64,000 bases of DNA from Hemileia vastatrix (lineage: Eukaryota > Basidiomycota > Pucciniomycetes > Pucciniales > Zaghouaniaceae): contig JASXTE010000011.1 of NCBI GenBank assembly GCA_030280995.1, positions 21,261,817 to 21,325,816 of the forward strand, written 5' to 3'. Below are positions 4,011 to 53,487 of this stretch, in pieces (position 1 is the first letter of the stretch; the number at the start of each line of letters is the position of its first letter). The position numbers were made by a program, and so were the translations under genes. The notes below the pieces were generated by a model. That model was given only the letters and a program-made list of their open reading frames with translations, ran no database searches and was not told where the DNA came from.

Positions 4011-4089
4011 TCCCACTAGAGCCTGAGACACACTCCAAAAAACCAGAGGCAGTACCCACATCTCTTCTTCTCCTAAAACAATCTGTGCA

Positions 4090-6390: not shown

Positions 6391-6476
6391 GGTCCAATAG
6401 ATTTCAGAAAACCAATCTCCAGCCAAAGAAGAGAGTGAAAAAGTAACAGAAAGTCCAAAAAGCTAACAAATCCTCA

Positions 6477-6493
6477 CCCCACATTGGGCACCA
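6477..6493 (-). promoter_or_regulatory. Primer-binding site of Gypsy-A
   Basis: Four bases (TTTC) after the LTR end, the minus strand reads TGGTGCCCAATGTGGGG. This resembles the tRNA-Lys1,2 type primer-binding site (TGGCGCCCAACGTGGGG), with two C-to-T changes. The primer assignment rests on animal retrovirus knowledge; the rust tRNA was not checked. Confidence 0.6.
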
Positions 6494-6497
6494 GAAA

Positions 6498-7533
6498 TGT
6501 AGACAATCCTATAGTACTAGCTATAGGCCTTGAAAAATGGAGTTGGAGTAAAACTGGAGAGAAAAACCCCTGTCCCTTTGAGAAATATCAGGTGAGATTT
6601 ATTTTCTACTGAAAATTAGAGACTGTTACAATACCCATTCCAAAATGCTTCTTGACTGCTTTACAAGTCAAGAAAGTAGCCTAGATTGACCACAGACCAA
6701 AGAGAACCTGAAATGCAGAAAGATCCACACCAGGAAAACAAAACACTGCACTTGTTGCACAGAAAACAGAAATAATACTTGATGAAGGCTGCAAAGCTAC
6801 ACCAGAGAGACCAGTTGTCAAAGTTGAATTAAATGAAGAACTAACCTTGTAGCGAAAATAGCCAATTGTGGCCAAAAAACAGTGAAAACTGAGTGAGAAA
6901 CAATGATATAATTACCAGATGGTTGTATGATAATTAAGGTTGCCCCAAACTGTTTTATTCAGTATGTACACACAGACCACCACCTAAAAAATCCATGCAC
7001 AGCAACTAATTTGGCACTCTAAAACCCTCTAGAAACACTCCCAAGCCTTCTATAACCCAGGCAAGTGGCCCACCTAGAGGCGGCCAGACCTCCCTGAAGC
7101 CAGAAAACCACCAAAAATACTTAGAAAAATCCACCACAACTAATAAAACCCTTAAAACACAAAATAAATCTATGAAAACATTGAGACATAAACTATAGAG
7201 CCAAATTATCTCTACTTAATTGTACTAAGAACTTAACCCTAAGACTTAAGGTTACCCTGTAAAACACAAAAAATAAAATTAAACAGCTATCTTTAAGAAA
7301 AGAAAAGTGAGTAAATGACCTCTTAAAAATTAGAATATGAAAAATATCAACAAGACATCATATATAGAGACAAACCAGGGCTATCCAATAGTAGTACCCA
7401 CATACCTATAGTCACAATATTCACTGATTAAAAAACCAAAATACACCTAATTATTCAACCAATGTCAATTAAGACATACAAAAACAGCGCCAAAAAGACC
7501 AACAAAGGCCTCTTCCAATGTTGGAAGACCACA
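6498..7533 (-). repeat. 5' LTR of Gypsy-A
   Basis: This 1036-bp LTR begins TGTGGTCTTCCAAC and ends GGATTGTCTACA when read on the minus strand, giving the usual TG...CA ends. It is homologous to the LTRs at 21600-22515 plus 29711-29972, 40789-41840, 46548-47610 and 49538-50622. Near its 3' end it carries the CCTATAG-N6-CTATAGG inverted repeat found in the whole family. Open frames inside it are LTR sequence, not genes. Confidence 0.85.
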
Positions 7534-7814
7534 CAATTTCAATCCTTCTTGGCAACACCTTTTTTGCACTCCTGCTTTCTGAGACATTTGCTGCGTTACT
7601 GCGAGATATGTACCACAATGCTTATCATCAGGTTGGATATGATTGAATAGAAAAAAGATGTAAAATTTTCTCAAAACAATATACAAAATTAAAAAGTATA
7701 AAAATATGTGATATTTAGATAGTATATGTAACACAATGAGTATGTCATGTTAAAAATAAATATAGAAGAACTAAGAATATGAAAAAACTATGTACTTTTA
7801 CACCCATCCTTTCT
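7534..7814 (-). repeat. Copia 3' LTR (clipped) and polypurine tract
   Basis: The purine run AGAAAGGATGGG (7814-7803, minus strand) immediately precedes TGTAAAAGTACATAG, the LTR start. About 155 bp from 7802 down to about 7640 match the 5' LTR at 42761-42606 well; the remainder to 7534 is more diverged. The LTR is about 269 bp instead of 406 bp because the Gypsy-A LTR begins at 7533. Confidence 0.75.
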
Positions 7815-21599: not shown

Positions 21600-22515
21600 T
21601 GTGGTCTTCCAACATTGGCAGGGGCCTTTGTTGTGTGATTTGGCGCTGTTTGTGCATGTCTTAATTGACATCTGTTGAAGAATTGGGTATTTTTCTGGTT
21701 TTATTCCGTGGATATTGGGTCTGCAGGTATGTGGGTACTACCATTGGATAGCCCCGGTTTTTCTCTATATTTCATGTCCTTCAGACATTTTTCATATTCT
21801 AAGTTTTAAGGGGTCATTTCCTCATTTTTCATTTAAAAAGATAGCTGTTTAATTTTGTTTTTTGTGTTTTACGGGCTAACCTTAAGTCTTAGGGTTAAGT
21901 ACTTAGTACCATTGGATAGGACTAATTTAGCTCTATATTTCATGTCTCAATGCTGTTATAGTGAAATTCCGTGTTTTAAAGGTTTTAGTAGTTGTAGATA
22001 ATTTTTCTAAGTAGATTAGGTGTTTTTATTGGTTTTCTGGCTTCAGGGAGGCCTGGCCGCTTCAGGCGGCGCCTCCGTAGCTAATTTTTCTAAGTAGATT
22101 AGGTGTTTTTATTGGTTTTCTGGCTTCAGGGAGGCCGGGCCTCTTCAGGTGGCGCCTCCGACGTCGGGTGGCCCGCCCGCCTCTGTTTTAGAAGGTTGGG
22201 GAGCGCTTCTGAAGGGTTTTTATTCAATTTGGCGGGTACAGGCGCCAAATTTGTGGGTGTGCATGGGCTCTTAGATAGTGGTCTGTGTGTACATAGTGAA
22301 TAAGACAGTTTTGGGCAACCTTAATTATCATACAACCATCTGGAGGTGATATCATTGTTCCTCACTCAGTTTTCACTGTTTTTGGCCACAATTGGCTGTT
22401 TTTGTTGCAAGGTTAGTTCTTCATTTAACTCAACATTGGCAACTGTTTTCTCTGTTATAGTCTTGCAAGCTATTGCAAGTATCATTGCTCTCTCTGGTGT
22501 GGATTTGCAGCCTAC
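21600..22515 (+). repeat. 5' LTR of Gypsy-B, first part
   Basis: It starts TGTGGTCTTCCAACATTGG and continues to the D2 insertion after GCAGCCTAC. An 83-bp direct duplication (21994-22076 and 22077-22159) around the GC-rich GGCGCCTCC segment is missing from the 3' LTR, so it arose after integration or was lost from the partner. Confidence 0.85.
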
Positions 22516-25184: not shown

Positions 25185-25239
25185 AGTTGTCATCGAAAAT
25201 TTTATATTTTTTCGTAAATTTTTAATAAATATTTTTTAT

Positions 25240-25640: not shown

Positions 25641-25679
25641 ATTTTTTTTGACTTGTAAATATTTTGGTGAAAATTTTTG

Positions 25680-29600: not shown

Positions 29601-29660
29601 TTACTTGAAATTTTTTCACTCATACCCACCCCTACAAGATTACTCCAAAGATTACTCCAG
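26611..29660. other. D2 interior right of D3: AT-rich, no gene recognised
   Basis: About 3 kb with no recognisable protein. A pyrimidine-rich stretch (26950-27420) gives spurious frames. The notable items are the two CACGTG hairpins (27478-27624) and a G-rich GGGGGGCACCTGCAGGGG patch near 27977. From 28080 to 29500 there is only AT-rich sequence. Confidence 0.4.
27478..27624. repeat. Two tandem hairpins bounded by CACGTG boxes
   Basis: 27478-27523 and 27580-27624 each read GTCACGTGCA...AGTGTC, a short spacer, then the near inverted copy ending GCACGTGA(T/C)C. The second has 20-bp arms with two mismatches. CACGTG is the classic bHLH (E-box) palindrome; use here is speculative. Confidence 0.55.
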
Positions 29661-29710
29661 AAGACCTGAAAAACAACTTGATTGCAAGTCCTCATTTTTT
29701 TCCCCCTGTG

Positions 29711-29972
29711 TACATCAAGTATCTTTGCTTTCTCTGGTATGGACATTGGTCAACATTTCAGTTCTTTGGTCTGTTAGTCTGTCTGGGGACTAATTTCTTG
29801 TCTCATCAAGAAGTCAAGTCTGTTGAAAAAGGGGCTTTAGCAAACAGGAACCAACTTACTTTAGCAAGTAAATCTCACTCTATTTTTCTACAGGGACAGG
29901 GGATTTCCTCTCTGGTTTTTTCTCCAACTCCCTTGGTCAAGGCCTATAGCTAGTACTATAGGATTGTCTACA
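29711..29972 (+). repeat. 5' LTR of Gypsy-B, last part
   Basis: It continues the LTR from the D2 duplication TAC through CCTATAGCTAGTACTATAGG to GGATTGTCTACA at 29972. It matches 41599-41840 apart from an extra CAACATTTCAGTTCTTTGG stretch that is also in the solo LTR at 46548-47610. Confidence 0.85.
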
Positions 29973-29976
29973 TTTC

Positions 29977-29993
29977 TGGCGTTCAACGTAGGG
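29977..29993 (+). promoter_or_regulatory. Primer-binding site of Gypsy-B
   Basis: TGGCGTTCAACGTAGGG begins four bases after the LTR end, in the same position as in Gypsy-A. The two copies differ from the tRNA-Lys1,2 type site only by transitions. Confidence 0.6.
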
Positions 29994-30064
29994 TTAGAAC
30001 TTGATAGTTCTTTGGAATCTCTGTTTTCTTTGGTTGACTCTTTTTGGTGTTTTGGACTGGAATA

Positions 30065-32329
30065 ATGGCTTCTGGATCTGCTATTCCTATAGTGACTGTC
30101 AGTGGGGGGGATGGTTCTCCTGCTGTGATGGTTAGGGAGTGTGTTAGGATTAAAACTTGGGATGGTACCAAGTTTAATGGGAAAGATGTGAAGTGGTTTC
30201 TGGAGAAGTATGAAACTGCTGCTGGTGTGGATGGTGCTTCTTACCTGAACATGGTGAAGCAGATTATTTTCTTCATTGGTGATAGGTCAGTGGAGAAGGT
30301 GATTGTGGCCATGTCTGGCTACAAGAAGAGGGATTGGAAATTGTTGTTTAGGGAGATGGTGGATAGATGGGGTGTCAGGTTCACTATGGTGGATCTGAAC
30401 AAGGTTGTCAGTGAATGGTAATCTTATGGTGGTGTTGGTAACTTGCATAGTTACAGGAAGTTTCTGCTACAGTTTGATCCTGTGTTGGAATATTTGGTAG
30501 AAGTGGAGGAGCTGGCACATGAAAATGCTGCCAAGGATGTTTTTTGGTCTGCCCTGGCTAGAGATGTCAGGATGGATGTGTTGAAGGAGCTGTCAAGGAA
30601 GGACTTGATGAAGACTATTTCTAATGGGGACCAGAAGTTACCTACCTTGGACAAGGTGAAGGAGGCTGTGCAGGCCCATTTGAAGTTATTGGCTGTGGAC
30701 ACCTATCAGGAGGGGTGTGCCAAGTATGTCAGCAAAGTCAGTGAGGCTTTGGCTGAAGAGGAAGTTATGGAGAAGAAGGAGGAGAAAAATTTGGTGCAGG
30801 TTCCCAAACAGGAGAGGGACCCAATGGTGGAGCAATTGGCTGATCTGACAAAACAGCTGCACATTTTTATCCAGGAGGCCAAGAAGGTTAATAAGGCATC
30901 TTCTCAGCCAAGAGATTTTGAAAGGAGGGCTGGTAGGAGTGATCCTTAGGTTTGCTCTTATTGCAGTATGAGGTGGCACAGGTCCAATGATTGTTGGGCA
31001 CTGAACAGAGATGTGTCCGAAGGAAAAGTGGAGCTTTATGGCAGGGTTTTCAAGTTCCCTGACTGTTCATTTGTGAAGCCCAGTGAGGGGCAGGCTCCTG
31101 TTGATTTGGTCAGGAGAAGGGGTGGTCTCAATCAAAGGAGGCAAAGTTTTGAGGAGATTACTGATCAGGGGAAGTCTTCTGGTAAGGAAGATGATGATGT
31201 CAAGGGAAAGGGGAAGGATGTCAATTTTTCTACTTCCTTTGGTGGTTTAGAGATGTATTCTTGTGGTGGACAGTCAAGTGGTGAATGCTTGGCTGGTGTT
31301 TATGATGTGGAAGCAGGAAAGGTGGGAAGGCCTAAGAGAAGTTCTCAGGCCCAACCAAAGCCTAAGGTTTCAAAGGTGGATCCTAAGCTGAGTGCAGCTA
31401 GAAAGAAGTACAGCAAAGAGGAGCTGTACAAGATGCAGAAGGGTATGGCTGACATGGGCCCCCCTAGTTTTGGTGCACTGGACATGAATGGTGAGCCAAT
31501 TCCCATGGATGTTGATTCTGACTCTGAGGAGGATGTATCTTTGGCTATATTGCCAGAGTCTGCTGGAGTTAGAGGGTCTGGTGAGGGATCTGGTTTGGTT
31601 CCTGTTAATGGTAAATCTGTTGGTGGTGCTGGTCCTCAAGAATCTTCTAGGACCAAGGTGGTAAAGCCAAGGGCTCACTTTGAGAGGCCAGTAGTTTCTG
31701 GTCAAGTTAATGTTATGGACTCTGTCATGGAAAGGATGAATCAGGGTCAGGTTTCCCTATCTTATGGGAAGTTGTATGCTATCAGTCCAGGGTTGGCTGA
31801 TAGACAAAAAAAGTTGTTGACCAGGAGAAGAGTTTCTTCTGGGGAGGTGGAATAAATCTGTGATTCTGTGGAAAATTTTGGTGAGGGGTTGGAAACTCAT
31901 TTTTCTGCTGGTCTGGGATATGTCAATGTCACTCTGAATGGCAGGGAGGCAAGGGCATTGGTGGATTCAGGTTCTCAGATAAACCTGATTTCTTTGTTTG
32001 AGGCAACTCATTTGGGCCTCTCCATCAAAACTGGTATTGGTGGGAATTTGAGAGGGATTGGTAGTCATGTCACTGAATTGGTTGGAACTTCAGAGTTTGT
32101 GAAGTTAGATGTTGGCGGAGCCTCAGGGAAGGTTCATTTTTACATTGCTAAAGGTAATTTAAAAGCAGTTTTAGGCGGGCCATTCTTGATGGATTTTCAG
32201 GCAAGAATTGTTTATCAATTTGTTTTGGGAATCAGCTTGGAGTTGACTGGTGAAGACAAAAGTAGGCTTCACATGAGGCTATCATCCCCCGGAGAGGATG
32301 GTTGGGAGACAGGCCTGGTTTATCTTTAA
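30065..32329 (+). pseudogene. gag: Gypsy-B gag-protease, one frame with three stops
   Basis: A single reading frame of about 755 codons starts MASGS at 30065 and is interrupted only by stops at 30419, 30947 and 31853. The domains are: gag capsid-like region (residues 1-270), zinc knuckle CSYCSMRWHRSNDC fitting CX2CX4HX4C (about residue 297), a Ser/Lys-rich linker, and a retropepsin-type protease with ALVDSGSQINLIS near 31960. It encodes the particle protein and maturation protease. The ATG shared with Gypsy-A supports the start. Because only three point changes break it, this copy decayed less than A. Confidence 0.8.
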
Positions 32330-32435
32330 TGTGCCAGTGCATGGATTGTTACACGAGAAGGAAAGAATTTGGTGCCACCTCTGGTTTTCTGGAGTGTGGC
32401 TCAGGCTGTATTGAGAGTCTGTCTTTTTTAGAGCA

Positions 32436-33660
32436 ATGAGGGATGATCAGCCTAGTGCTACAACCTCTCCCCAAGATGAGGAAATCCCAGTTTGTAGTAG
32501 TTCAGCTCCCTTGGAGATATACCAAGTGGATTTTCAAACTTCTCTTTTTAATGTTTCTCTTCTCTGCAAGTATTCTTCAAGATTTTTATCATGTCTCTGT
32601 TCTCTCTCAAGATTCTCAATTATTTTTAATTCAAGATCAAGGAAGAAGATTGGTTATATATCTTTATTGAAAGATATGGGGAAAAGTTTTGGAGTGGTGA
32701 GATTGGGGCATAAAAGTAAGTCCTCCCAATTTTGCACCGCTAGGGTTTCTTCTACACCTGTCAAAAACATTACCTTGGCCACACATGTGAGCATTGGGGA
32801 AACCCCTGGTTATTTATGTAGGACAGAAGAAAACTCAAGAAAAGAAGATAAAAATTTCAAGAAATTTCAAGAAAATCAGGAAAAAAATCTGAAGATAATG
32901 AATAAAGAAGATCATCAAGATCAATTTTTGGGCCTCCAGCATTAGGTTAAACTGCAGAAAATAATGAAGAAAGAAGGTCATCAAGATCTATTTTTGGGCC
33001 TCCAGCATGAGGTTAAACTGCAGAAAATTACAAAGAAAGAAGGTCATCAAGATCAATTTTTAGGCCTCCAGCATGAGGATAAACTGCACAATTTTAAAAG
33101 AGTTGATTCTGAAGATGAATCAATATTTGAAGATTTGGAAGACGGAAGTGAAGATGAAGATTTGGTATAGGGGAAAAGTTTTGGAGTGGTGAGATTGAGG
33201 TCCAAAAGTAAGTCCTCTCAATTGTGCACCGCTAGAGTTTCTTCTACACTTTTAAAAACATTACCTTGGCCACAAATGTTAGAAATGGGGAAACCCTTGG
33301 TTTTTGTTCCAGGTCTGGTGGTGAAGATTTCCTGAAGATCCCTCAAGTTGAAGTTGGAGCGGCAAAGTATAAGAAGGTAGCGCAGAAGATTAGGCATGTT
33401 AATGAGCCTATGCCTGTGGGTTTGAATCCGCCCTTGGAGAGACCTCCTTTGTCAAGAGATCAGTACTGTACTCCTTTGGTGAAGAATCCTCCAGAAATTG
33501 TAGAGACGGCTAGGGTGACTGTGGAAAGGTTGAAAGTTGTTAATTTTGGTCCTGATGGGTGGTTATCTGAAGAAGAAAAGAAGTTGTTGTTGCACTTTAT
33601 TGTGTTAAAGAAAAATCTGTGGCTTTTGTTGAGGAGAAAAGGGGTGTGTTGAAGCACTCA
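32436..33660 (+). pseudogene. Gypsy-B spacer domain between protease and RT, with internal repeats
   Basis: The frame opens MRDDQPSATTSPQ at 32436 and belongs to the pol frame. It holds two copies about 0.5 kb apart of a ~140-bp segment (32678 and 33170) encoding KSFGVVRL...CTARVSSTP...GET, and between them three ~63-bp units encoding HQDQFLGLQHEVKLQK. Gypsy-A has one such unit. A frameshift near 33170-33266 moves the frame and a second restores it by 33684. The function is unknown; it is not a standard pol domain. Confidence 0.6.
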
Positions 33661-33683
33661 TATGGGGAACCTTACTGATTCCT

Positions 33684-36660
33684 GTGGTTTGTCATGAGCC
33701 TTGGCAAATCAAACCTATTCCGATTCCAGCTGCTATCAGAGAGGATTTTGTGGAGATTGTTAGGGTAATAGTCAGGACTGGGTTATACGAACAATTGAAA
33801 TCCAGTTACTCAAGTCCGGTTTTCTGTGTAAAGAAGCAGAATGGAAAGTTGAGGGTGGTTCATGATCTTAGAGCCTTGAATAGAGTCAATATAAAGGACG
33901 CTGGTATGCCACCAAGTGCGGAGGATTTTGTTGAAGCTTTTTCTGGAAGGGTGTGTTATGGTTTGGGTAATATTATGGGTGGTTATGATGAGAGGGAACT
34001 TCAAACAGATTCAAGGCCTCTCACAACTTTTGAGACTCATTTAGGAAGATTTCAGCTCACTAAGTTGCCTCAGGGAACAACTAATTCAGTGGTGGTATAT
34101 CAAGCACCGATGGCTTGGATTTCGCAGGATGAGGTTCCTACTCATTCTGGTGTTTTTATTGATGATGGTGGAATTAAAGGGCCATCCACTGATTATGATA
34201 ATGAGGTGTTAGCAGAGAACCCTGACATAAGGAGGTTTGTTTGTGAATATGCAATAACTCTAGAGAGAGTGTTGTTTAGGATTGAAGAGGCTGGTTTGAC
34301 CATTTCAGGGTCAAAATTCTGTTGTTGTGTTCCTGCTTTGATAATTCTGGGTCATGTGGTATGTAAAGAGTGAAGGATTATGGCAAAGAAGACGATTAAT
34401 AAAATTCAGTCAAGGCCAAGGCCTAAAAATACCACTGAAGTCAGGGGATTTTTGGTTGTATTTGTATATGTCAGGATTTTTATTAAGGATTTTTCTTTGT
34501 TGGATTCACCTTTAAGGAGGTTGACCAGGAAAGATGCAGAATGGGAATGGACTGAAGAGTGTGAAGAGGCTTTTCAGAAGTTGAAAACGGTTGTTGGTGA
34601 AGATATTGTTCTTCATAAGTTGGATTATGGTGTTGGTGCTGGAAAAATTTATCTGGCAGTGGACTCAAGCTATATTGCTGATGGTGCTGTTTTGTCTCAG
34701 GAGGATAAGACTGGGAGGGTCAGGCCAGTAAGATATGAGTCTGTGGTGTTTAATGAGGTGTAATCTAGGTATTCTCAACCTAAATTGGAATTGTGTGGTG
34801 TAGCATAAATTTTAAAGAAGCTACACACTGTTTTGTGGGGGCAGCATTTTGAGCTGCAGGTGGATGCAAAATCTTTGGTTCAGATGATCAATACTCCTAG
34901 TCTTCCAAATGCTCCAATGACTAGGTGGGTGGCATTTATTCAAAAATTTTCTTTTGACCTGATACACAAACCAGGAAAAACTTTTACAATGCCTGATGGA
35001 TTATCAGGGAGGCCACCTACAGATGAAGATTCTTAGGCTGAATAGTTTGATGAAGATGTTACGGTGGTTAGGGCCAGCACTGAGGGTGCTGAAGATTTTT
35101 CTCACCTCCCTCAAGAGGCTAAACTGGCTTGATCTGATCTTGATTCTGGTGAGCGGGATGTCTTTTTTGATGAAGATGGAGTTGTTGTTTGGGACAGCTC
35201 AAAATTGAAAAAAGGTGTTTTTGTTAGTGAAATGGATTCTCACAAGGTTCAGTGGAAAGAGAAGGAGGTGCCAAAATTTAAGGATTGGTGTCCTGGTTGG
35301 GCTGGTCAATTGGCTCATGTTCACACTTGTGATTTTGATGATAGATTTGTACCCTTGGATGTTGTTTTGTTGGATTTTGAAGACAAGACCTGGGGTCAGT
35401 CTGGGTTTTATTTTATTTTGGTGGAATACCTGTTGACCTTGGAGAGGCCAGATAATTGTGATGATGATACTTGGTTGGAAATTAAGAAGAAGATTTCTTG
35501 ATTTTATGTGTCAGGAAGAAGGTTGAGGGGGAGGAGACATCCTAATCCTCAAGTTGTGGTGACTCAGAAGAAGAGTCAAGAAGTTGTGTTGAAGTCTTTG
35601 CATGAAGACCTTGGTCATAGAGGCTTTGGGGAGACTTATAGAAGAGTAGCAGACAGATTTTGGTGGCCAGGTATGAAGTTGGCTGTGCAGGGTTGGGTTC
35701 AATCTTGTGAAGAATGTCAAAGAAGAAGTCACTTGAAACCTAAAGAGGTTGTCCCTGCTACTGGTGAAACAACTGTTTTTGGAAGAGTCAGTCTGGATGC
35801 TGTCCATTTTAAAGAGGGAAGGTATAAATACTTAATTATTGTCATGGATGATTTGTCTGGTTGGGTTGAGGCAGTGCCTCTGGTAAATTTGACTGCCAAG
35901 AATGTGGCAGAGTTTTTGAAAAAGGAGTGGATCTATAGGTATGGGTTGATGAAGTTGGTGACTGTTGATGGTGGGCCAGAGTTTGGTGCCAAATTTAAAG
36001 AAGCTGTGGCTAGTGTTGGCTCTAAAGTTAGAGTGGCTACACCTTATTATACTGAAGCTGAAGGCATGGTTGAAAGAGGCCATCAAGTTATCAAGAATGC
36101 TTTGTTAAAGATGTATGGGGATAGTGCTGAAAAGTGGAGGCATTATTTACCCTTGGTGTTATTTGCTGATAGGGTCACTGTGAAGAAGACAACTGGTTAT
36201 TCTCCTTACTAGTTAATGTTTGGTCAAAAGCTGTTCTACCAGTGGAGTTGGAAGCTGTCTCTTATCTTGGAATTGATTGGGATGATGTGCACTCAACGGA
36301 AGAATTTCTCTGTTCCAAGATGCAACAGTTGGAATGTAGAGAGGAATGTCAAGAGAAGGCATACTCTAGAATGATGAAGATTAGGAATCAATCAGTCAGG
36401 TACTGGGACAAGAAGTTGGCTCATAGACTCAGTAATCCCTTGAAACCTGGTTTTTAGGTTTTGGTGTATAATAGAAGTTTGGAGAGTCAGTGGGGAAAAA
36501 TGTTTGCTGACAGATGGAATGGACCTTACAGAGTCTGATCTCAGGCGTCTGGAGGTTCTTATGTTTTGGAAGAGTTGCATGGTGCAGTCTTGAAAAAGAG
36601 AGTGGCTGCAGACCAGGTGAATAGGTTCTATCCCAGAGGGACTAGGCATGAAGAAGATTG
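33684..36660 (+). pseudogene. pol: Gypsy-B reverse transcriptase, RNase H and integrase
   Basis: RT: SSYSSPVFCVKKQNGKLRVV, LPQG and the catalytic box VFIDDGG (33684-34373), then the connection and RNase H (34380-35036, with LAVDSSYIADGAVLSQ). Integrase: HEDLGHRGFGETYRR...SCEECQRR zinc finger, catalytic SLDAVHF, TVDGGPEF and EGMVERGHQ (35508-36212), then the C-terminal RWNGPYRV block to about 36660. The main frame is kept with stops at 34371, 34761, 35034, 35499 and 36210 and a shift after 36240. The RT, RNase H, integrase order defines Ty3/Gypsy. Confidence 0.85.
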
Positions 36661-36744
36661 ACTCGGCAATGAGGATAAATTATGGAAAGTTCTTTAAATT
36701 TTGGATTTTGGCGTTGCAGAGCAACTTTTGTGTTGGAAACTTTT

Positions 36745-37110
36745 GTTAGAGGGTACCCATTGGTGGGGCCTCTAGTTTTTCCTTGGCAAGTGTGGGGGTA
36801 ACTGATGGGCTGGCTGCTCTGTAGAACAGTTACCCCAGATTGTCTGTTTCCATCCCTTTCTCTTTATTTGGTTGAACCCTAGTAGTTGTTTCTTTTCACA
36901 GGTTTTAGTCCTCTATGACTTTAAACTGGAAATTCATTTGGTTTTCAAGTGCTTGACTCTTCACTCTTATTGGTTTTAGTTTATTGTGTTGGATGTTGTG
37001 TTTTTGTTAGAAGGTACCCAGGGGGGGGGGCTTCTAGATTTTTTTTTGGCAAGTGTGGGGGAAACTGATGAGCTGGCTGCTCTGTAGAACAGTTACCCCA
37101 GAATGTCTTT
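36745..37110 (+). repeat. Two copies of a GGTACCC...GGGGTAACTG hairpin block
   Basis: A ~100-bp block at 36745-36844 recurs at 37009-37110, and a third copy lies at 39783-39895. Each ends in an inverted repeat: 36795-36836, 37057-37099 and 39844-39884. Two AGTC-N6-GACT palindromes follow the blocks (36907-36920 and 37172-37185). The zone lies just downstream of pol on the sense strand and downstream of the antisense genes. Confidence 0.65.
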
Positions 37111-37923
37111 CTCAAGTCTTTTGTTTTTTCCTAGTTAAATTCTAGTTCTGTTGTTTATTATTCAGGTTTCAAGTCCACTATGACTTTAAATTGGTTTGGG
37201 ATTGGCTTCTTTATCTATGGTTCTTTCAGATTGGTGGTGGATCACTGTTGGTCTTCCATCATTTTTACTTATTGGAGGGATCCCACCCAGTGATCATTCC
37301 TATGGACCGGACTTTCTCTTATTGGACCATCTATGGAGCCGGACTGTCTTTGATTTTGTACTTATGTTTTTGCTAGATAGTAGTTTCAGATTACTTTCTT
37401 TTTTCTCTTTTTTTCTTTTAAGTTTTTTATGGGGGTTGTTAAAATTATAAAATTAAAAAAATAGGGTGTTACCACATCAGGGTCACCTGGATGTGGGCAA
37501 GCATTGGTGGGGAAAGGCTCATCAATTGGCCGGCCAATGCTATTTTATCATTTTAGTTTATTTTATTTTTATTTTCATTAATTTCATTTTTTATTTTTTT
37601 ATTCTCATTATCACCCTAAATTTATGTTTCTTATTTATAATTTTTAAAATATTTCATGGTGTATCCACATCAAGGTGCACTTGGATGTGGGCAAGGTATA
37701 AGGGGATCAGCTCATCAATTGTCTGGGGGATACCATTTGTATTATTTTTTATCTTTAATTTTATTTCATTTTTTTAATTTTATTTTATTTATCAATTTTT
37801 AATTTTAGCATATTAGTAGATATAAGAAAAAAAATATATATATATAATGTATATTAGAATTTAAAGTTATTAATTTTTTTTATTATTTATTTATTATTAT
37901 GTTTCTAATCTTTTTGCAGGAGC
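37111..37923. repeat. AT-rich 3' zone with a ~193-bp direct repeat
   Basis: The segment GTGT(T/A)(A/T)CCACATCA(G/A)GGT...GGATGTGGGCAAG appears at 37466 and 37659. Between and after the copies is T-rich sequence. The matching place in Gypsy-C carries the giant TTTTTA microsatellite. Frames over 37191-37777 show no known protein. Confidence 0.5.
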
Positions 37924-39470
37924 TCATTGTCTGGATGATGAAGCTTCTGGAGGCTGGTCCGGATTATGATGTCGTTTTTGTTTTTTGTTGGGGTTGTGGG
38001 AAGCACTGTGTTCTTTGAAGTGCATCCTGCTGGAGAGATTATATGGATTGTAATGGGAAGGAATTGGATTAGAGGGAAGTTCAGAGGAGGAAGAAGAAGA
38101 GGCAGGAATGGAGTGCTGGAAGGTGTGCTTAATGATCCTAGACATCTTCCAGTGGTCGTCCAACAGGCGCTTTCTCAGGGATTTTTCAAAGTCATTCAAA
38201 GGTCCATGGAGGGCAAAGACTTTTAGCATGTTTGAAGACATGGCTCTGAGGTGTTGTTTCATGTCGCCATAATCCAGGGTCAAAGGAGTTTCTAGAGGTT
38301 GGCCAACTCCAATAGTAGATTCAGGAGGAGGGATTCCAACTAGACAAGAAGAATTGGATCAGTAATTATTTTTGTTGAAGATATTGGATGAATTAATGTG
38401 GTACTTACAGATTGGAAGCTCATCAAATTTGTAAGAAGCCGGAATTTGGACTTCTGAAGATTTTGGAATGGTCATAGTAGGTGGATCAATCAGGGAAAGA
38501 TATGGATTCTCCTGGTCTTCCTCTGAAAGGTTTTGAGAAGGTGAACTAGGAGTCTGATTTTCCTGGGGCCTAGCTGGAGCAGCAGGTCTGTTGTTGCTGT
38601 TGTTAATATTTCTGCTTGATTCAGTTGGATGAGGTGCTGGTGATGGAGTACCAGGGTTGTTATACAATGGAGCAGGAGAGGGTGATTTGGAAGCAGATTG
38701 ATCTCTTCTGGATGGAGCTTTTGAGGGAATAGAACTGTCAGAAGAATAGTTGGCTGACAGAGGAGAGGTGTAGTTTTGTTGTCTTAACTGGGGACAAAGT
38801 TGTTGCTTTGGTGCAGTGTTGGGTGCTCTGGTTTCTTCCTGGGGTCCTCTGGCAGGTCTCCTAGAATTTTGGAGAATTTTGGAGTTTTTGGACCTTTGAA
38901 GGGTTGGCTGCATTGCTCTGGGAGCATTGGGAGTTAATTGCATGGAGTTGTTTTCGTTGATTGGATGAATTTGGCTGTTTTTTGGTTGTTTTTGGAGGTT
39001 TTGAGCCTGATTTTCACTGTCTAGTGAGGTGGGCGGGCAGACTGACATTGGCCGGGCCGCCTGGACGCAGTCTAGAATCCTAGGAGCTAATTCAGCATAG
39101 ATAAAAGCTGTTTCTTGGGAAGCTAAGGCTGGTCTTTTGGGAAGAGCTCTGGAAGCTGAGTTCCTGGATCTTCTGGACGGTGCTGAGGATACAGAGGAAG
39201 AGTATGGACCAAGCTCTGGGGATCTGGTAGGGGATCTGGAGAGGTATTTATGAAAAGGTGAAGGAGGAGGAATAGGGTAGTTGTCATCTCTGTCACATTT
39301 CTTCTTTTTGGAGTAGCAAGAATCACAAGCCCTGTTGTAGAATTTGGCTTCAGGAGTTGGAAGAGTGAATGTGCAAGGTCTGCACATGTGGATGCACTGT
39401 TTGCAGGCATAGTCCTTGGGAGCAGTGAAGCAAGGAAGAGTAGAGGGGTCAACATCAGAGGATCCAGCAA
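37924..39470 (-). CDS. Antisense gene 2 of Gypsy-B: cysteine-cluster protein, one intron
   Basis: Exon 1 runs from about 39470 to 38409, an intron (38408-38340, donor GTAAGT, acceptor TCTAG) is removed, and exon 2 ends at the stop at 37924; joining preserves the frame. The protein is about 490 residues. Its N-terminal cluster is CX2CX3CX2CX15CX2CX6C with a basic YSKKKK loop, reminiscent of a permuted fungal Zn2Cys6 domain. A long Ser/Pro/Gln/Asn-rich middle follows, then a conserved LTLDYGDMKQHLR...LLDDHWKMSRIIK domain and a basic KKQKRHH stretch. It is antisense to pol. The start codon is unclear: the ATG used by the Gypsy-C copy is ATC here. A zinc-binding, DNA-binding role is inference. 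Confidence 0.65.
38340..38408 (-). other. Intron of antisense gene 2 (Gypsy-B)
   Basis: A 69-bp intron with GTAAGT donor and TCTAG acceptor on the minus strand. Splicing joins exon phases exactly and gives the same protein junction (GIPPPES) as the Gypsy-C copy (GTPPPTA). It cannot be spliced from the sense genomic RNA. Confidence 0.7.
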
Positions 39471-39623
39471 TTATCTTTGGTGAGAAAAGATGATGGAAAG
39501 AGATAAGAAGGATATTTTTGTCAGTGATGGGTAGATGATGAAGTGAAGGTGGAAGTTCAGCAGCTTGGCTGTAGGTGTGTTCTGTATGAAATTGGCTGCG
39601 TCTATTTTATGCAAAACTCTGTA

Positions 39624-40029
39624 AGTCCTCCAAGACTTTAAACTGGCTGGTTTCAAGATTAGTCTGTCAAGAATTTAAAATGAACACTGTGTTAGTCCCC
39701 CAAGACTTTAAACTGAGGATTGTTTGATGATGTAGTCCCCTAAGACTATAAACTGAGGAATGATTTTTGCTGTTGGAGAAGTTTGAAAGATTGGCAGAAG
39801 GTATCCACAGGGGGAGCCTCTGAATTTAGCAAAGGCAAGTTTGGGGGTAATTGATGGGCTGGCAGCTCTATTCACAATTACCCCAGAATGTTAGTTTTTT
39901 TCTCTGTGTCTTAATATGGTTGATCTCTGTTTCTGGGTTTATGATTTAGGTTTTTGAGTCCCCCAAGACTTTAAACTGAGGGGTTTTGAGTCCCCCAAGA
40001 CTATAAAATGAGGATGGTCCCCCAAGACT
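39624..40029. promoter_or_regulatory. Cluster of AGTC-N6-GACT palindromes between the antisense genes (Gypsy-B)
   Basis: Sites with both arms intact: 39624-39637 (loop CTCCAA), 39694-39707 (CCCCAA), 39734-39747 (CCCTAA), 39957-39970 and 39989-40002 (CCCCAA). One has a single arm change (40016-40029, GGTC) and one is more degenerate (39661-39674). Each is followed by TWTAAAMTGAGG or close. They lie upstream of antisense gene 2 and downstream of antisense gene 1, a natural place for promoter elements. A binding protein is not known; the element's own cysteine-cluster protein is a candidate. Confidence 0.55.
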
Positions 40030-40099
40030 TAAAACTGAGGGTTGTTTTGTGGTTACATCCTATAGAGGGTGTGGTCAATTTTTCTTTTCTGAATCAAAC

Positions 40100-40740
40100 T
40101 CAAGTACTAGTGGAATTACAGAGGGAATCCAGAGATGAAAGGAAGTGTTCAGAGTTAGCCTTGAACTGGTGAATGAGGTGTCTTCTGTTCTCAATGTCCT
40201 GTGGATCTCTAGCAGGAGTGGATTGGAAGTAGTTTAGAAGAAGGTGTTTCTGTTGAGATGTGTGTTGTTGAAACTCAGCCTTAATTTCAGGCAAGTGGTT
40301 TGGTGCTGGTGGTTCAATGGATCCTAAATTGTTATCATCACTGTCAGAAGATGGAGGAACTGAGAAGTCATCAGTTTTATAAAGTGGAAAGAAGGAATGG
40401 AAGTTTTTACCATTAGATGGACTAGGGATGGCTGAACTTGTTGTTTTAGTGGTTTTGGAACTCTTCTGGGAAGGGTGTAGCTTTTTGATTAATCTGGGAA
40501 TCAAGATGGATTGCCTAGATCTTTTTGTTCTGGTAGAAGATGGACCAGGTTGAGGTGGAGGTGAAGCTGTTGCGCAAGATAATGGACCAGGTCTGTAGCA
40601 GGACTTCTTTCTAGACTGGAAGACATCCCAGGACGTTCTTTATGGATGGACAGGAGGTGTGATGGTGCAGATTAGATTATTGTCAATGCAGTATTGGCAA
40701 GGACCCTTTCAGAGGCAGATTTGAGAAGAAGGTTGAACAT
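40100..40740 (-). pseudogene. Antisense gene 1 of Gypsy-B: cysteine-cluster protein
   Basis: It aligns end to end with 50671-51306. Exon 1 begins at the ATG at 40740 (MFNLLLKSA); a 1-bp deletion near 40705, a stop and the loss of two zinc-ligand Cys (CDAC reads WDVF) disable it. An intron at 40410-40360 (51 bp, GTAAAA...CTCAG) sits exactly where Gypsy-C has a 49-bp intron. Being a multiple of three it stays open if unspliced. Exon 2 encodes a DSDD acidic patch, FQQHTSQQKHLLLNYFQSTP and a C-terminal helix-rich part, ending at 40100. Confidence 0.6.
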
Positions 40741-40778
40741 GGTGGTTTGATGAAGAAAGAATGTGGATATTCTTAATT

Positions 40779-40788
40779 TGAGGGAGGA
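40779..40788 (+). promoter_or_regulatory. Polypurine tract of Gypsy-B
   Basis: TGAGGGAGGA directly precedes the 3' LTR. The same GGGAGGGAGGA run precedes the Gypsy-C 3' LTR on the minus strand at 50623, which proves that the antisense-gene module is internal to both elements. Confidence 0.7.
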
Positions 40789-41840
40789 CGTGGTCTTCCA
40801 ACATTGTCAGGGGCCTTTGTTATGTGATTTGGCACTGTTTGTGCATGTCTTAATTGACATCTGTTGAGGAGTTGGATATTTTTCTGGTTTTATTCCGAGG
40901 ATATTGGGTCTGTGGGTATGTGGGTACTACCATTGGATACCCCCGGTTTTTCTCTATATTTCATGTCTTGTAGCCATTTTTCATATTCTAAGTTTTAAGG
41001 GGTCATTTCCTCATTTTTCATTTAAAAAGATAGCTGTTTAATTTTGTTTTTTGTGTTTTACGGGCTAACCTTAAGTCTTAGGGTTAAGTACTTAGTACCA
41101 TTGGATAGGGCTAATTTAGCTCTATATTTCATGTCCCAATGCTTTTATAGTGAAATTCTGTGTTTTAAAGGTTTTAGTATTTGTAGCTAATTTTTCTAAG
41201 TAGATTAGGTGTTTTTATTGGTTTTCTGGCTTCAGGCAGCGCCTCCGACGTTGGGTGGCCCGCCCGCCTCTGTTTTAGAAGGTTGGGGAGTGCTTCTGGA
41301 GGGTTTTTATTCAATTTGGCAGGTACAGGTGCCAAATTTGTGGGTGTGCATGGGCTCTTAGATAGTGGTCTGGGTGTACATAGTGAATAAGACAGTTTGG
41401 GGCAACCTTAATTATCACACAACCATACAGAGGTGATATCATTGTTCCTCACTCAGTTTTCACTGTTTTTGGCCACAATTGGCTGTGTTTGTTGCAAGGT
41501 TAGTTCTTCATTTAACTTAACTTTGGCAACTGTTTTCTCTGTTATAGTCTTGCAAGCTATAGCAAGTATCATTGCTGTCTCTGGTGTGGATTTGCAGCCT
41601 ACATCAAGTATCTTTGCTTTCTCTGGTGTGGACATTGGTCTGTTAGTCTGTCTGGGGAATTCTTTCTTGGCTCATCAAGCAGTCAAGTCTGTTGGAAAAG
41701 GGGCTTTAGCAAACAGGAACCAACTTACTTTAGCAAGTAAATCTCACTCTATTTTTCTAAAGGGACAGGGGATTTTCTTTCTGGTTTTTTCTCCAACTCC
41801 CTTGGTCAAGGCCTATAGCTAGTACTATAGGATTGTCTAA
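40789..41840 (+). repeat. 3' LTR of Gypsy-B
   Basis: It starts CGTGGTCTTCCAAC (first T changed to C) and ends GGATTGTCTAA; the last bases differ from TCTACA in the 5' LTR. It is followed by ATCGT, pairing with ATTGT before the 5' LTR. It lacks the 83-bp duplication and a short segment present in the 5' LTR. Confidence 0.85.
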
Positions 41841-42218
41841 ATCGTGAAATTTAATGTCATGATAGCAAGAGAAGATTGAAGCTCTATTGGAAGCATTGTA
41901 GGTGGAATATTGAGAACATAGTTTAAATCAAATTTTCCATGGCTTCTCCATGTAATCATCTTTGAAAAATGCAGCTAAATATCCAGAATCAATTTTATAA
42001 ATAAAAATTTTGGCTGCTCTATTTATTCTTGTTTGAAATTCATTGATAATGGTTTGAGATGCAGTTTTGAAAGGTGGTCTTTCTTTCCCTAAGACTAATC
42101 ATTTAAGTTTATGATGTGTGAGATGGGAAATAATTCTTATGCACCATTTGTGAAATTTTTCAGAGGAAAGGATGAAAATATTTTGAGAGGAATTGTTGGA
42201 GTTATTTGTACTTTCCAT
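41841..42218 (-). pseudogene. gag: Copia gag N-terminus
   Basis: The ATG at 42218 opens MESTNNSNNSSQNIFILSSEKFHKWCIRIISHLTH, the usual start of a Copia gag (UBN2-type) with the K(W)xxI core. Stops follow (after HHKLK and MEKPWKI). The frame ends at the Gypsy-B flank and resumes on the far side at 21599. Confidence 0.7.
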
Positions 42219-47610: not shown

Positions 47611-47636
47611 CATTTCAAAAGAAATTAATTTATATC

Positions 47637-49250: not shown

Positions 49251-49537
49251 CTAATTTGAAATGTAAGGATCATTTTCTGACTTAGAATCAACCACCATGT
49301 TGTGAAGAATGACACAACATTTCATCACATATTTTACAGAATTAATATCCCATAGATGACAAGGTTAGGTGATTATTCCCCAACTGGCTTGCAATATGCC
49401 AAAAGCACAATCAATATCTTTTTGTGCAGCCTCTTGATGCTTAGCAAAGTATCTACTTGAAGCTTCTTGCGGGTGAGGAATATTTTTGACCAAAGATGAC
49501 CAGGAAGGATATATTCCATCAGCAAGATAATAGGTGT
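49251..49537 (-). pseudogene. HARBI1-like transposase C-terminus (element H)
   Basis: From the Gypsy-C junction the minus strand reads TYYLADGIYPSWSSLVKNI, with the second catalytic Asp region, HPQEASSRYFAKHQEAAQKDIDCAFGILQASW, then after one TAA the conserved VKYVMKCCVILHNMVV end and a stop at 49251. The last catalytic position reads D (KDIDCAFG) where relatives have E (ERAFG). The N-terminal half is not found beyond Gypsy-C in this window. Confidence 0.8.
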
Positions 49538-50622
49538 TGTAGAAAATCCTATAGTGCTAGCTACAGGCCTTGAGCAAGGGAGTTGGATTAAAACTGGGGA
49601 GAAAAACCCCATTCTCTTTAGAAAAATAAAGTGAGATTTACCTGCTACAGTAAATTGGTTCACGTTTGCTAAATCCCCTTTTTCAAAACACTTGACTGCT
49701 TTATCAGCCATGAAAGAAGTCTCCAGACAGACTACCAAACCAAAGAAATAAAATGTTGACCAATTTCCACACCAGAGAAAGCAATGATACTTGATGTAGG
49801 TTGCAAATCCACACCAGAAACAGCAATAATACTTGATATAGCTTGCAAGACTATACCAGAGAAACCATTTTCCAAGTTAAGTTAAATGAAGAACTCACTT
49901 TGCAAAAAACACAGCCAATTGTGGCCAAAAAACAGTGAAAACTGGGTGAGGAACAAGTATATCACCTCCGGATAGTTTTATGATAATTAAAGTTGCCTCA
50001 AACTGTCTTATTCACTATGTACACACAAAACACTAATTAAGAGCCCATGCACACCAACTAATTTGGTGTTCTTGACCGCTAAATTGCATAAAACCTCCCT
50101 AGAAATGCTTCCCAGCCCTCTAGCACTGAGGCGGGAAGTCTGCCCGCCTGAGGTGGCCTGACCACCCTGAAGTCAGAAAACCACCATAAACCACCAAGAA
50201 TACCCAAACTACTTAGAAAAATCTACTGCAACTACTAAAGCCTTTAAAACACGTAATTAAGCTATAACAACAGTGTGACATGAAATGTAGAGAAAATTTA
50301 GCTCATTCCAATGCTACTAAGCACTTAACCCTAAGGCTTAAGGTTAGCCCATAAAACATGAAAAACAAAATTAAACAGCAATCTTTTTAAATTAAAAATG
50401 AAAAATTATCCCCTTAATACTTAGAATAAGAAAAATTCCATATATACATAAAATATAGAGAAAAACTGGGTCTATCCAATGGTAGTAATCACATCCCCAT
50501 AGTCTGAATATTTTCTGAGTAATTCGAGAAAAACACCTAATTATTAGACAATGCCATTTAAGGCATATCAAAACAACATAAAATAAACCAACCAAGGGGT
50601 CCACCAATGTTGGAAGACCACA
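49538..50622 (-). repeat. 3' LTR of Gypsy-C
   Basis: 1085 bp; starts TGTGGTCTTCCAACATTGG at 50622 and ends GGATTTTCTACA at 49538. The terminal hairpin is CCTGTAG-CTAGCA-CTATAGG, one arm base changed. Confidence 0.85.
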
Positions 50623-50670: not shown

Positions 50671-51306
50671 ATGTTCAGCTTTCTTTCCAAATCTGCTACT
50701 GACATGGGCCCCTGCCAATATTGCATTGAAAACAATCTCATCTGTACCATCACACCACCAGCTCATCCCCACAAAACCTCCTGTGATGCCTGTCACTCTA
50801 GGAAGAAGACTTGTTTAAGACATGGTCCATTGTCCTCTGAAAAATATTCTCCTTCTCCACAATCTGATTCACCTTCTACCAGCACCAAAAGATCCAGACC
50901 ATCTATCCTGATCCCCAGACTGGTCCACAAATTACACCCTTCAAAAAATAGTGCCGACCCTACTACTACCACTAGCTCTACCATCCCTGGTTCTTCTTAT
51001 GGTAAGCCCAAAACCTCTTCATACTGAAATTCAATCTGAAAAATTTCCAGTTCATTTCCCTCCTGACAGTGATGATGACAATGTGGGAACCATCAAAGCA
51101 CCCCCACCTAAACAATTGCTCACCTTCAAGGACAAATTTCAACAACATTCTTCTCAACAGAAGCATCTAATACTAAAATACTTCCAATCCACTCCTGCTA
51201 GGAACCCACAGGATCTTGAAAAAGGAAGAACCTCATACACCAGTTCAAAGCCAATGCTGAACATTTTGTTACATCTCTTGATCCTATTCTTCCTCTTGAC
51301 TCTTGA
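50671..51306 (+). CDS. Antisense gene 1 of Gypsy-C: cysteine-cluster protein, one intron
   Basis: It starts MFSFLSKSATDMGP at 50671. The N-terminal cluster is CX2CX6CX13CX2CX6C (CQYC...CDACHSRKKTC): two CX2CX6C halves as in fungal Zn2Cys6 activators but with the basic half second. A basic Ser/Pro-rich stretch follows (TKRSRPSILIPRLVHKLHPS). The intron 51002-51050 (49 bp, GTAAGC...TTCCAG) restores the frame into FPPDSDDDNVG and FQQHSSQQKHLILKYFQSTPARNPQD. One frameshift near 51230 precedes the normal end at 51306. Transcription is opposite to the retrotransposon. A nuclear regulator is a reasonable guess; a nucleic-acid chaperone is another. Confidence 0.65.
51002..51050 (+). other. Intron of antisense gene 1 (Gypsy-C)
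   Basis: 49 bp, GTAAGC donor and TTTCCAG acceptor, phase 1. Gypsy-B has a 51-bp intron of unrelated sequence at the same codon. The length difference would shift the frame if the segment were coding. Confidence 0.7.
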
Positions 51307-51399
51307 TTAATCTCTTGACTTAGAAATAAAAAAATAATTCTTGACACTCCAGACTTCCCAAATGTAGCCAATCATCATAAAAAAAGTTCCTCAGTTTAC

Positions 51400-51754: not shown

Positions 51755-51907
51755 GAAACACATTTTTCATAGCAAAGGGGGAGCCACCTCCATGCACAAC
51801 GCTCCACAACCAACCTGCTGAATTTCCACTGTTTCTTCACCATCTACACATCACTGATAGCTTTTTCATTCATCTTTTTTCTCTTTTTTATTGATCCTTC
51901 ACATATC

Positions 51908-53487
51908 ATGACTAGATCACCAGATTTTAACCCATTGGACCTTTCCTTCTTCACTGCTTCAAAGGACTATGCTTGTAAACAGTGCATCCACATGTGCAGA
52001 CCTTTCACATTCACTCTTCCCACTCCCCAGGCCAAATTTTATAACAGGGCATGTGATTCCTGAAATTATAAACAAAAATGTGACAGAGATCCAAACTATC
52101 CAATAAATCCACCTTCACCTTCACAAAAATATATTTCCAGATATCCTACCAGGTCACCAGAACTTGCACCTGCTTCTTCTTCTTCATCTTCTGCTCCTTC
52201 CAGAAGATCATGCTGTTCTATTCCCAAAACACTTTCTAAAAGACCTGCTTTATCTTCTCAAGAATCTGCTTTTATCACAGCAAATTTGTCAAAAATGGCT
52301 TTAAAATCAGCTCTTAGGCTGCTAGACCATGTCCAGGCGGCCCTCCCAATTACAGACAGCCCGCCCGCCTTGCCAGAAAGCAAAAATCAGGCCCAAAACT
52401 CCCAAATTCAGCCAGATAACAGCCAAATTCTTCCATCAAACACCAACAACTCTACACCAAAACCTCCTAATTCTCCCAGAGCAATGTATACCACCACCAT
52501 TACTTCATCTGTCAACACCAGAAATTCCAACATCTCTATAAGGCCTGCAAGAGGACCCACTGAAAACACCAAAGCAGCTAACACTCTCCATAAACAAAAA
52601 ACTCCTGTTACTTCAAGAAGAAATAACTTCACCTCTCCTCTGGCTGCCAATTATTCCTCTGATAGTTCTTTTTCTTCTAGATCTTCATCCAGCAGATCAA
52701 AATCAGCTACCAGGTCACCTTCTCCTGGTCTTTCCTTCAACCAGCCTGGCACTCCTCTGCCAGAATCTAACAAAACCTGCTCCAAGCAATAATATAAACA
52801 ACAACAACAACAACAGCCCTGCTGCTGCAAATAGGTCACAGAAACCTCCTTCTTCTCCTTCATCTTCTCAACACAATTTAGAGGATGACCACAAAAATCC
52901 ATTCCTCCATTTGGTGGACCCTACTACCACATCTATTCAAAGTTCTTCAGCCATCCAGATTCCAGCTGCATACAAATTTGAAGATCTTCCTATTTTTAAG
53001 TACCAAAATAAAATAACAAAAATCCAATTTCTTCAACAGAGAATAATTATTGGTCCAATTCTTCTGTTTAGTTGGAACCCCACCTCCTACAGCTGAATCT
53101 AGAATTGGCCAAACCCTAGAAACTACTTTGACGCTAGATTATGCTGATATGAAGCAACACCTTAGAATGATGTGTTCTAACATTCTCAAGGTCTTTGCTC
53201 TCCATGGTCTGTTGAATGATTTTGAGAAGAATCTGAGAAAAGAACTCCTTGATGACCACTGGAAGATGTCTTGAATTATCAAGCACACCTTCCAGAACTC
53301 CATTCCTGCTTCTTCCTCTTCTTCCCAGAGTTTACCTTCTTACCTGGTACCTGACCACTATAACCGGTATACTCTCTCCAGCCGCCTGCACTACAAAGAA
53401 CACAGTTTTTCTTCTAATCCAATCAAGAAACAAAAACTCCAACCCCATCTGGACCCACCACCGAAGGCTTCTTCATCCCGTCATTAA
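51908..53487 (+). pseudogene. Antisense gene 2 of Gypsy-C, with lesions
   Basis: It starts MTRSPDFNPLDLSFFTASKD at 51908, followed by CKQCIHMCRPFTF: the fourth Cys of the cluster is Phe, and the CDSC motif is cut by a TGA. The Ser/Pro-rich middle runs to about 52790 with a frameshift near 52786. The intron acceptor (TTTAG at 53071) is kept but the donor G is T (TTAAGT near 52997). Exon 2 encodes LTLDYADMKQHLRMMCSNILKVFALHG, a TGA in place of an Arg codon at 53273, and ends at 53487. It is homologous to 39470-37924 throughout. Confidence 0.65.

What the first reader, a model, noticed from the sequence alone, without database searches (positions are those of the whole stretch)
37924..40740. A Gypsy retrotransposon family with two spliced antisense genes between pol and the 3' LTR
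Gypsy-B has two minus-strand genes in its ~4.1-kb 3' region, and Gypsy-C (50671-53487) has the same pair in the same antisense orientation, directly abutting the same purine tract and LTR. Both proteins start with a cysteine cluster (CX2CX6CX13CX2CX6C in gene 1; CX2CX3CX2CX15CX2CX6C in gene 2) with a basic loop, like a permuted Zn2Cys6 domain. Antisense introns survive because the sense genomic RNA is the reverse-transcription template and cannot splice them. Antisense ORFs in this position are known in some plant elements (for example Grande in maize); a zinc-cluster pair with introns in a fungal element looks undescribed to me.
Basis: partly seen in the sequence, partly recalled or inferred. 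Interest (0 to 1): 0.92.

Follow-up and report, generated by a model that had tools for sequence, protein, structure and literature searches.

The report
Retrotransposon with two backward zinc-cluster genes
A very abundant jumping element in a fungal genome carries, on its opposite strand, two related genes for small zinc-cluster, probably DNA-binding proteins that look spliced and have been kept by selection, so the element seems to bring its own regulators.

Summary
Between pol and the 3' LTR of this Ty3/Gypsy family lie two genes on the opposite strand (B: 37924-40740; C: 50671-53487). The module belongs to the family: 19 of 20 pol-selected B-like copies have it at the expected place, 7 of 7 C-like copies examined have gypsy pol beyond it, and lineage A has it. 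The frames are real genes: 5.4 stops per 1000 codons against 28-71 in the other five frames; dN/dS between lineages 0.29-0.40, like pol (0.19-0.40). Each gene has one phase-1 intron with conserved GT/AG; in the LTR-side gene the exon frames shift between copies, as splicing predicts. The two Cys domains match each other (hhalign E 3e-5), so the pair looks like a duplication; their halves are in swapped order relative to Gal4-type Zn2Cys6. A 16-bp motif recurs 5-11 times between the genes. Both window copies are broken. Antisense genes here are known in plant Retand/Grande and fungal Boty; an intron-bearing zinc-cluster pair did not appear in my search listings. The regulatory function is inferred.

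The parts
21601..22515 (+). element B, 5' LTR, left part (split by nested insertion 22516-29710)
   Evidence: 95% and 92% identical to the 3' LTR in two pieces
29711..29976 (+). element B, 5' LTR, right part
   Evidence: 88% identical to 41600-41842
29977..36640 (+). element B gag-pol region, frame broken; RVT_1 at 33684-34373, Integrase_H2C2 and rve at 35508-36212
   Evidence: Pfam
36741..36929 (+). repeat unit u1 with dyad GGGGTAACTG..CAGTTACCCC
37001..37194 (+). repeat unit u2, same dyad with one mismatch
37924..38339 (-). B pol-side gene, exon 2 with stop codon (predicted helical hairpin)
   Evidence: open in B; conserved in lineages A and C
38340..38408 (-). B pol-side gene, intron, 69 bp, phase 1, GTAAGT...TCTAG
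   Evidence: GT in 20 of 21, AG in 21 of 21 aligned rows
38409..39471 (-). B pol-side gene, exon 1: Cys cluster CX2CX3CX2CX15CX2CX6C and S/P-rich linker; the start codon position reads ATT in B
39630..40037 (+). array of CCAAGACTWTAAACTG motifs between the two genes, single orientation
39796..39978 (+). repeat unit u3 between the genes, dyad GGGGTAATTG..CAATTACCCC in B
40100..40359 (-). B LTR-side gene, exon 2 with stop codon (predicted C-terminal helices)
40360..40410 (-). B LTR-side gene, intron, 51 bp, phase 1
   Evidence: GT in 16 of 17, AG in 17 of 17 rows with letters; length changes not in threes between copies
40411..40740 (-). B LTR-side gene, exon 1: Cys cluster CX2CX6CX12CX2CX6C in other copies (frameshift and stop in B)
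40780..40788 (+). purine tract GAGGGAGGA before the 3' LTR
   Evidence: sequence
40789..41841 (+). element B 3' LTR
49535..50622 (-). element C 3' LTR
50671..51001 (+). C LTR-side gene, exon 1 with intact Cys cluster; Pfam Zn_clus 22.7 bits (cut-off 21)
51051..51310 (+). C LTR-side gene, exon 2 (frame broken)
   Evidence: compared with L057
51392..51748 (-). motif array of C
51908..52995 (+). C pol-side gene, exon 1 (stop in the Cys cluster, frame broken)
53072..53487 (+). C pol-side gene, exon 2 (one stop)
1..7537 (-). element A, 5' LTR and gag-pol; its antisense module lies left of the window (G000:C34:21256200-21261816, locus L029)

Best explanation
A Ty3/Gypsy family, spread in at least three lineages (A, B, C) of a fungal genome, has a fixed accessory module between pol and the 3' LTR: two tandem, paralogous genes on the minus strand, each with one phase-1 intron, coding for proteins with an N-terminal six/seven-cysteine cluster (halves of a Zn2Cys6 cluster in swapped order), a low-complexity S/P-rich linker and a C-terminal helical region. 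Shown: presence in the three lineages, conserved frames and splice-site sequences, purifying selection, similarity of the two Cys domains. Inferred: they are transcribed antisense from a promoter in or next to the 3' LTR (LTR-side gene) and from the motif-rich interval between the genes (pol-side gene), are spliced, enter the nucleus and bind DNA as regulators of the element, acting on the 16-bp motif array and/or the GGGGTAACTG dyads. The introns survive transposition because the genomic (sense) RNA carries them in reverse complement and cannot splice them.
For: Family membership. Selection: dN/dS over the four exons A-B 0.399, A-C 0.325, B-C 0.293, against 0.98-1.79 in four control frames and 0.40-0.51 in the mirror sense frame, which has 40.8 stops per 1000 codons against 5.4 in the gene frame; RT and integrase 0.19-0.40 between lineages. 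Among B-like copies, polymorphisms shared by two or more copies lean to codon position 3 (53/57/90) while singletons do not (200/160/176), Fisher P 0.0025. Introns. Cys domains; paralogy: hhalign E 3e-5, probability 73%, plus equal intron phase (worked out from the coordinates). Motif array: 5-11 sites, all in one orientation, in 26 of 29 copies counted; the three others have lost the interval. Analogue: Retand antisense ORFs with TRP28 in 97% of clusters, suggested to bind DNA (PMC11963269, abstract and passages).
Against: No transcript, splicing, nuclear or DNA-binding data. dN/dS by single exon ranges from 0.16 to 0.71 (the LTR-side exon 2, A-B, is the weakest at 0.71). Only one half of each cluster matches Zn_clus alone; B's 415-aa pol-side frame scores 10.8 bits, and of three B-like LTR-side frames two score 16.3 and 11.9 and one does not match, all under the cut-off of 21. 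AlphaFold2 is poor over the Cys domain (pLDDT under 50) and Foldseek has no meaningful match for the C-terminal hairpin (best E 4). The C-terminal regions of the two genes show no detectable homology (hhalign probability 0.1%). The 16-bp motif and the dyad are not linked to the proteins by any test.
Confidence: 0.6

Rival explanations
1. The module's main product is antisense RNA (silencing or interference with the sense genomic RNA); the proteins are secondary.
For: Antisense RNA has been proposed as a role for such regions in plant elements (PMC7264820, passages).
Against: Codon-level constraint in the gene frame, the stop deficit and retained cysteines in lineages A, B, C; RNA-only function does not predict these.
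Confidence: 0.1
2. The proteins act in the particle or at integration (chaperone, targeting, nuclear import) rather than in transcription.
For: Cys clusters with basic loops can bind nucleic acid in general; no target is known here (inference).
Against: The arrangement resembles halves of the fungal DNA-binding Zn2Cys6 cluster; a separate antisense transcription unit is an unusual way to make a particle protein (inference).
Confidence: 0.2
3. The module is an independent mobile element or a captured host gene pair that hitchhikes and is not part of the element's biology.
For: The window's C copy has no pol beside it; a microsatellite lies at the module's edge in A and C.
Against: 19 of 20 pol-selected copies and 7 of 7 C-like copies examined carry module and pol together; selection about as strong as on pol. 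An ancient capture from the host as origin is not excluded.
Confidence: 0.07
4. Host-domesticated source genes keep the reading frame and the copies merely descend from them.
For: No search here could separate single-copy host relatives from the many element copies.
Against: Selection is seen between three element lineages that also diverge in pol and LTR; three protein searches found no relative, though I do not know how many fungal proteins that set holds.
Confidence: 0.05

Closest known systems
Plant Retand-lineage elements (Grande, RIRE2, Retand) with antisense aORFs (PMC11963269, PMC7264820)
   Same: Ty3/Gypsy; long pol-3'LTR region; antisense coding conserved over the family; tandem repeats in the same region; suspected DNA-binding product (abstracts and passages)
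   Different: Their antisense proteins carry TRP28 or other domains, not a cysteine cluster; Pfam gave no TRP28 here; a word search for 'intron' in both papers gave 0 hits; plants, not fungi
Boty of Botrytis cinerea with antisense gene brtn (Zhao et al. 2011; known to me only through PMC7264820 and PMC8365987)
   Same: Fungal LTR element with an antisense gene between pol and 3' LTR
   Different: One gene named; the passages I saw state neither a zinc cluster nor introns; the original paper was not read, so the comparison is incomplete
HTLV-1 HBZ (antisense, 3' LTR-initiated, spliced; PMC1459196 and PMC3185765, search listing only)
   Same: Works like: antisense gene read from the 3' LTR side, spliced, coding for a regulator
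   Different: bZIP protein in a mammalian retrovirus; one gene; no homology claimed
Gal4-type Zn2Cys6 cluster (Pfam PF00172)
   Same: Two CX2CX6C half-sites with a basic loop; C's LTR-side exon-1 frame scores 22.7 bits over a cut-off of 21
   Different: Half-sites in swapped order; no Fungal_trans match in the frames scanned

Membership tests
Ty3/Gypsy LTR retrotransposon | LTRs at both ends | tested here: met
   B: split 5' LTR and 3' LTR
Ty3/Gypsy LTR retrotransposon | RT before integrase | tested here: met
   RVT_1 at 33684-34373 (29.0 bits, just under its cut-off 29.6), then Integrase_H2C2 and rve at 35508-36212 over their cut-offs
[quoted passage not shown]
   (copies examined, not a census)
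Retand lineage proper | TRP28 (PF04195) in the antisense protein | tested here: not met
   no such match for five frames at E up to 10
Zn2Cys6 (PF00172) | six cysteines as two CX2CX6C half-sites | tested here: met
   LTR-side gene: each cysteine retained in 12-18 of 18 rows with letters; pol-side: 16-22 of 22; the pol-side gene has a seventh
Zn2Cys6 (PF00172) | canonical order, basic half first | tested here: not met
   LTR-side first half matches profile 17-35; pol-side second half matches 1-16
Zn2Cys6 (PF00172) | zinc and DNA binding | not testable with these tools
   model confidence under 50 over the cluster
Spliced antisense genes | intron removed in vivo | not testable with these tools
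   sequence evidence only: conserved GT/AG and frame offsets
Boty/brtn antisense gene | homology to the brtn protein | not tested
   brtn sequence not at hand

The most novel reading that the evidence does not exclude
The element carries a self-contained two-protein regulatory circuit: duplicated zinc-cluster proteins, diverged in their C-termini, act as an opposing or heterodimeric pair on the 5-11 motif sites between their own genes and on the dyads beyond pol, setting the element's own copy-number-dependent activity; antisense placement lets a retroelement keep real introns.
Probability: 0.2. Interest if true: 0.88.

Novelty: new variant of a known kind. Interest (0 to 1): 0.72.

Why it matters
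Retroelements normally cannot keep introns in genes read in the direction of their own genomic RNA. Here two genes with what look like introns have been carried through long retrotransposition under selection, a natural test of the idea that antisense placement protects introns. If the proteins regulate the element, they offer a concrete handle on how Gypsy elements came to fill a very large fungal genome, and a further case, beside plant Retand and HTLV HBZ, of antisense accessory proteins in LTR elements that are known or suspected to act on DNA.

Tried and rejected
Homologues: three searches of the 5.8-billion-protein set gave nothing at E up to 0.01 or 0.1; the first drew 7995 candidates, probably through low-complexity words. 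PDB sequence search: one match taken as chance (E 0.2) for one profile and none for the other. Foldseek with the pol-side exon 2 model: best E 4. Gene-gene homology in the C-terminal regions: not detected. Rfam over 36500-42000: one sub-threshold miRNA match (E 0.047), taken as chance. RNA folding of the repeat units: u1 and u2 fold no better than shuffles (z +0.7, +0.4); u3 somewhat (z about -2 on either strand), so I do not claim an RNA structure. The mirror sense frame was considered as the coding one (dN/dS 0.40-0.51) and rejected on its stops. One search had wrong frame anchors for two exons and is superseded. Rows dropped before counts: copy L012 from the alignments because of an insert (module 4.06 kb); four copies (L011, L019, L021, L023) are partial; L054 (1450 N of 3229) was not used for motif counts; for the pol test of C-like copies I passed over L053 and L056 (module cut short) and L054.

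Full report
What is there. The window is G000:C34:21261817-21325816 of a 748-Mb genome without name. Fungal_trans domains, 24 matches of which 13 lie on contigs of at least 17 Mb, say fungus. Three related Gypsy elements lie in the window: A (minus strand, cut by the window start), B (plus, 21601-41842 with a nested insertion in its 5' LTR) and the 3' end of C (minus). RT and integrase domains are recognised in B in the Gypsy order, RT just under its Pfam cut-off.

The module. In B, 37924-40740, and in C, 50671-53487, two genes run against pol. Each has exon 1 with a cysteine cluster and a low-complexity S/P-rich stretch, a short intron, and exon 2. Both window copies are broken in different places, so the evidence has to come from other copies.

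Part of the element or passenger? I fetched the 20 best module hits after B itself, of 40 listed, with 10 kb each: 19 of 20 have pol upstream in line, 16 of 20 match on into the 3' LTR (one of these, L012, only just, at the end of its stretch), and in four the match breaks off between the genes or inside the LTR-side gene. Because those copies were chosen by the module, I also took 20 of the 40 listed pol hits (B itself and two copies already seen left out; 17 not looked at) and looked only at the place where the module should be: 19 of 20 have it. The exception runs on to B-37835 and is then followed by pieces of another gypsy pol, at 72-75% identity. For lineage C, 7 of 7 module copies looked at, of 39 listed besides C, have gypsy pol on the far side at 84-88% identity to B. 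Lineage A has the module too, about 75% identical to B's, with a (TTTTA)n array between pol and module. The first look counted 2179-2979 candidates for three short DNA queries inside the module; only 40 of each were scored, so these are not copy numbers.

Are they genes? Over the four exons and 22 aligned rows (A, B, C and 19 copies, some partial) the gene frame has 75 stops in 13,947 codons (5.4 per 1000); the five other frames have 27.6 to 71.0 per 1000. Nei-Gojobori dN/dS over the four exons is 0.399 (A-B), 0.325 (A-C) and 0.293 (B-C); for these pairs four of the five other frames give 0.98-1.79, and the mirror sense frame 0.40-0.51, which its stops rule out as coding. By single exon the ratio ranges from 0.16 to 0.71, weakest for the LTR-side exon 2 between A and B. 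Differences by codon position, B-C: 175/672, 123/674, 282/674. RT and integrase between lineages give 0.19-0.40, so the antisense genes are held about as tightly as pol. Within the B group the mean ratio is 0.58 over 171 pairs, as expected for selected lineages plus neutral decay after insertion (B against two B-like copies in pol: 0.38-0.81), and singletons show no codon-position bias of the coding kind. Copies are related by descent, so the P values are only indicative.

Introns. The pol-side intron has GT in 20 of 21 rows (C has TT) and AG in 21 of 21; the LTR-side intron has GT in 16 of 17 rows with letters and AG in 17 of 17. In B and several copies the LTR-side frame runs open through the intron (four over all 253 codons), but in five other copies, and in C, the two exons lie in different frames because the intron changed length by other than threes. 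That is what a spliced intron predicts. Both introns are phase 1 and separate the linker from the C-terminal helices (coordinates).

The proteins. The LTR-side exon-1 frame of C passes the Pfam cut-off for Zn_clus (22.7 against 21 bits), its best stretch being the first half, which matches the profile's second half; three B-like copies stay under the cut-off (16.3 bits, 11.9 bits, no match). Cut apart, the first half of C's LTR-side cluster matches profile 17-35 (17.9 bits) and the second half of B's pol-side cluster matches profile 1-16 (20.0 bits, E 7.5e-4), while the other half of each gives no Zn_clus match. The basic loop is therefore in the second half-site. The two clusters match each other (hhalign E 3e-5, probability 73%, 37% identity over 41 columns), the C-terminal regions do not. 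AlphaFold2 gives two helices for each C-terminal region at moderate confidence and nothing usable for the cluster.

Cis elements. CCAAGACTWTAAACTG occurs 18 times in the window at up to three mismatches against 2.1 expected, 13 of these between the two genes of B and C. Of 29 module copies counted at up to two mismatches, 26 have 5-11 sites and the three that have lost the interval between the genes have 0-1; all are in one orientation. A dyad GGGGTAACTG..CAGTTACCCC recurs (78 units scanned, at least one a chance match): 27 have this form exactly and 12 the matched change GGGGTAATTG..CAATTACCCC, which in B, L009 and L026 is the unit between the genes; A's unit there has the first form. I take these as candidate target sites; no test links them to the proteins.

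How it probably works. An antisense promoter at the 3' LTR gives the LTR-side mRNA and the motif-rich interval gives the pol-side mRNA; both are spliced and make small nuclear proteins that regulate the element. Every step after 'conserved genes with intron-like interruptions' is inference.

Known or new. [quoted passage not shown] PMC11963269, abstract and passages), reviewed with Grande and the fungal Boty gene brtn in PMC7264820 (passages and section 5). HTLV-1 makes a spliced antisense transcript from its 3' LTR (PMC1459196, listing only). My searches for an antisense zinc-cluster or intron-bearing pair in a fungal element showed none in the titles and abstract starts listed; several lists were capped (20 of 73, 12 of 307, 15 of 40). 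A search for a permuted Zn2Cys6 showed 8 of 158 papers, none of the eight with the word permuted. The library lacks most subscription papers; the Boty paper I did not read. A 2025 survey of rust transposons does not contain the words antisense or zinc (PMC12210899, word search). So: a new variant of a known kind.

Noticed in passing
22516-29710: A 7.2-kb insertion in B's 5' LTR with terminal inverted repeats starting CACAGGGGGAAAAAAA and a 3-bp duplication TAC; looks like a CACTA-type DNA transposon (type recalled, not searched).
   Followed up: partly
12588-20003: Tandem array with a period near 606 bp, copies roughly 70-82% alike, about 12 units by length.
   Followed up: no
46548-47612: LTR of the same family on the plus strand, 88% identical to C's LTR; no internal region was seen next to it, so probably a solo LTR.
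   Followed up: no
53551-54198: About 108 copies of TTTTTA (by length) behind C's module; A and four of the seven other C-like loci have T-rich arrays at the same place, while in B the opposite strand is T-rich there.
   Followed up: partly
module alignment, B and copies L009-L028 without L012: Singleton changes are nearly as often C:G to A:T transversions (239) as C:G to T:A transitions (253), an odd spectrum for decaying repeats in a fungus.
   Followed up: no
24541-25670 and 57669-58800: Inverted pair of 1.1-kb repeats at 84% identity, one inside the nested insertion.
   Followed up: no
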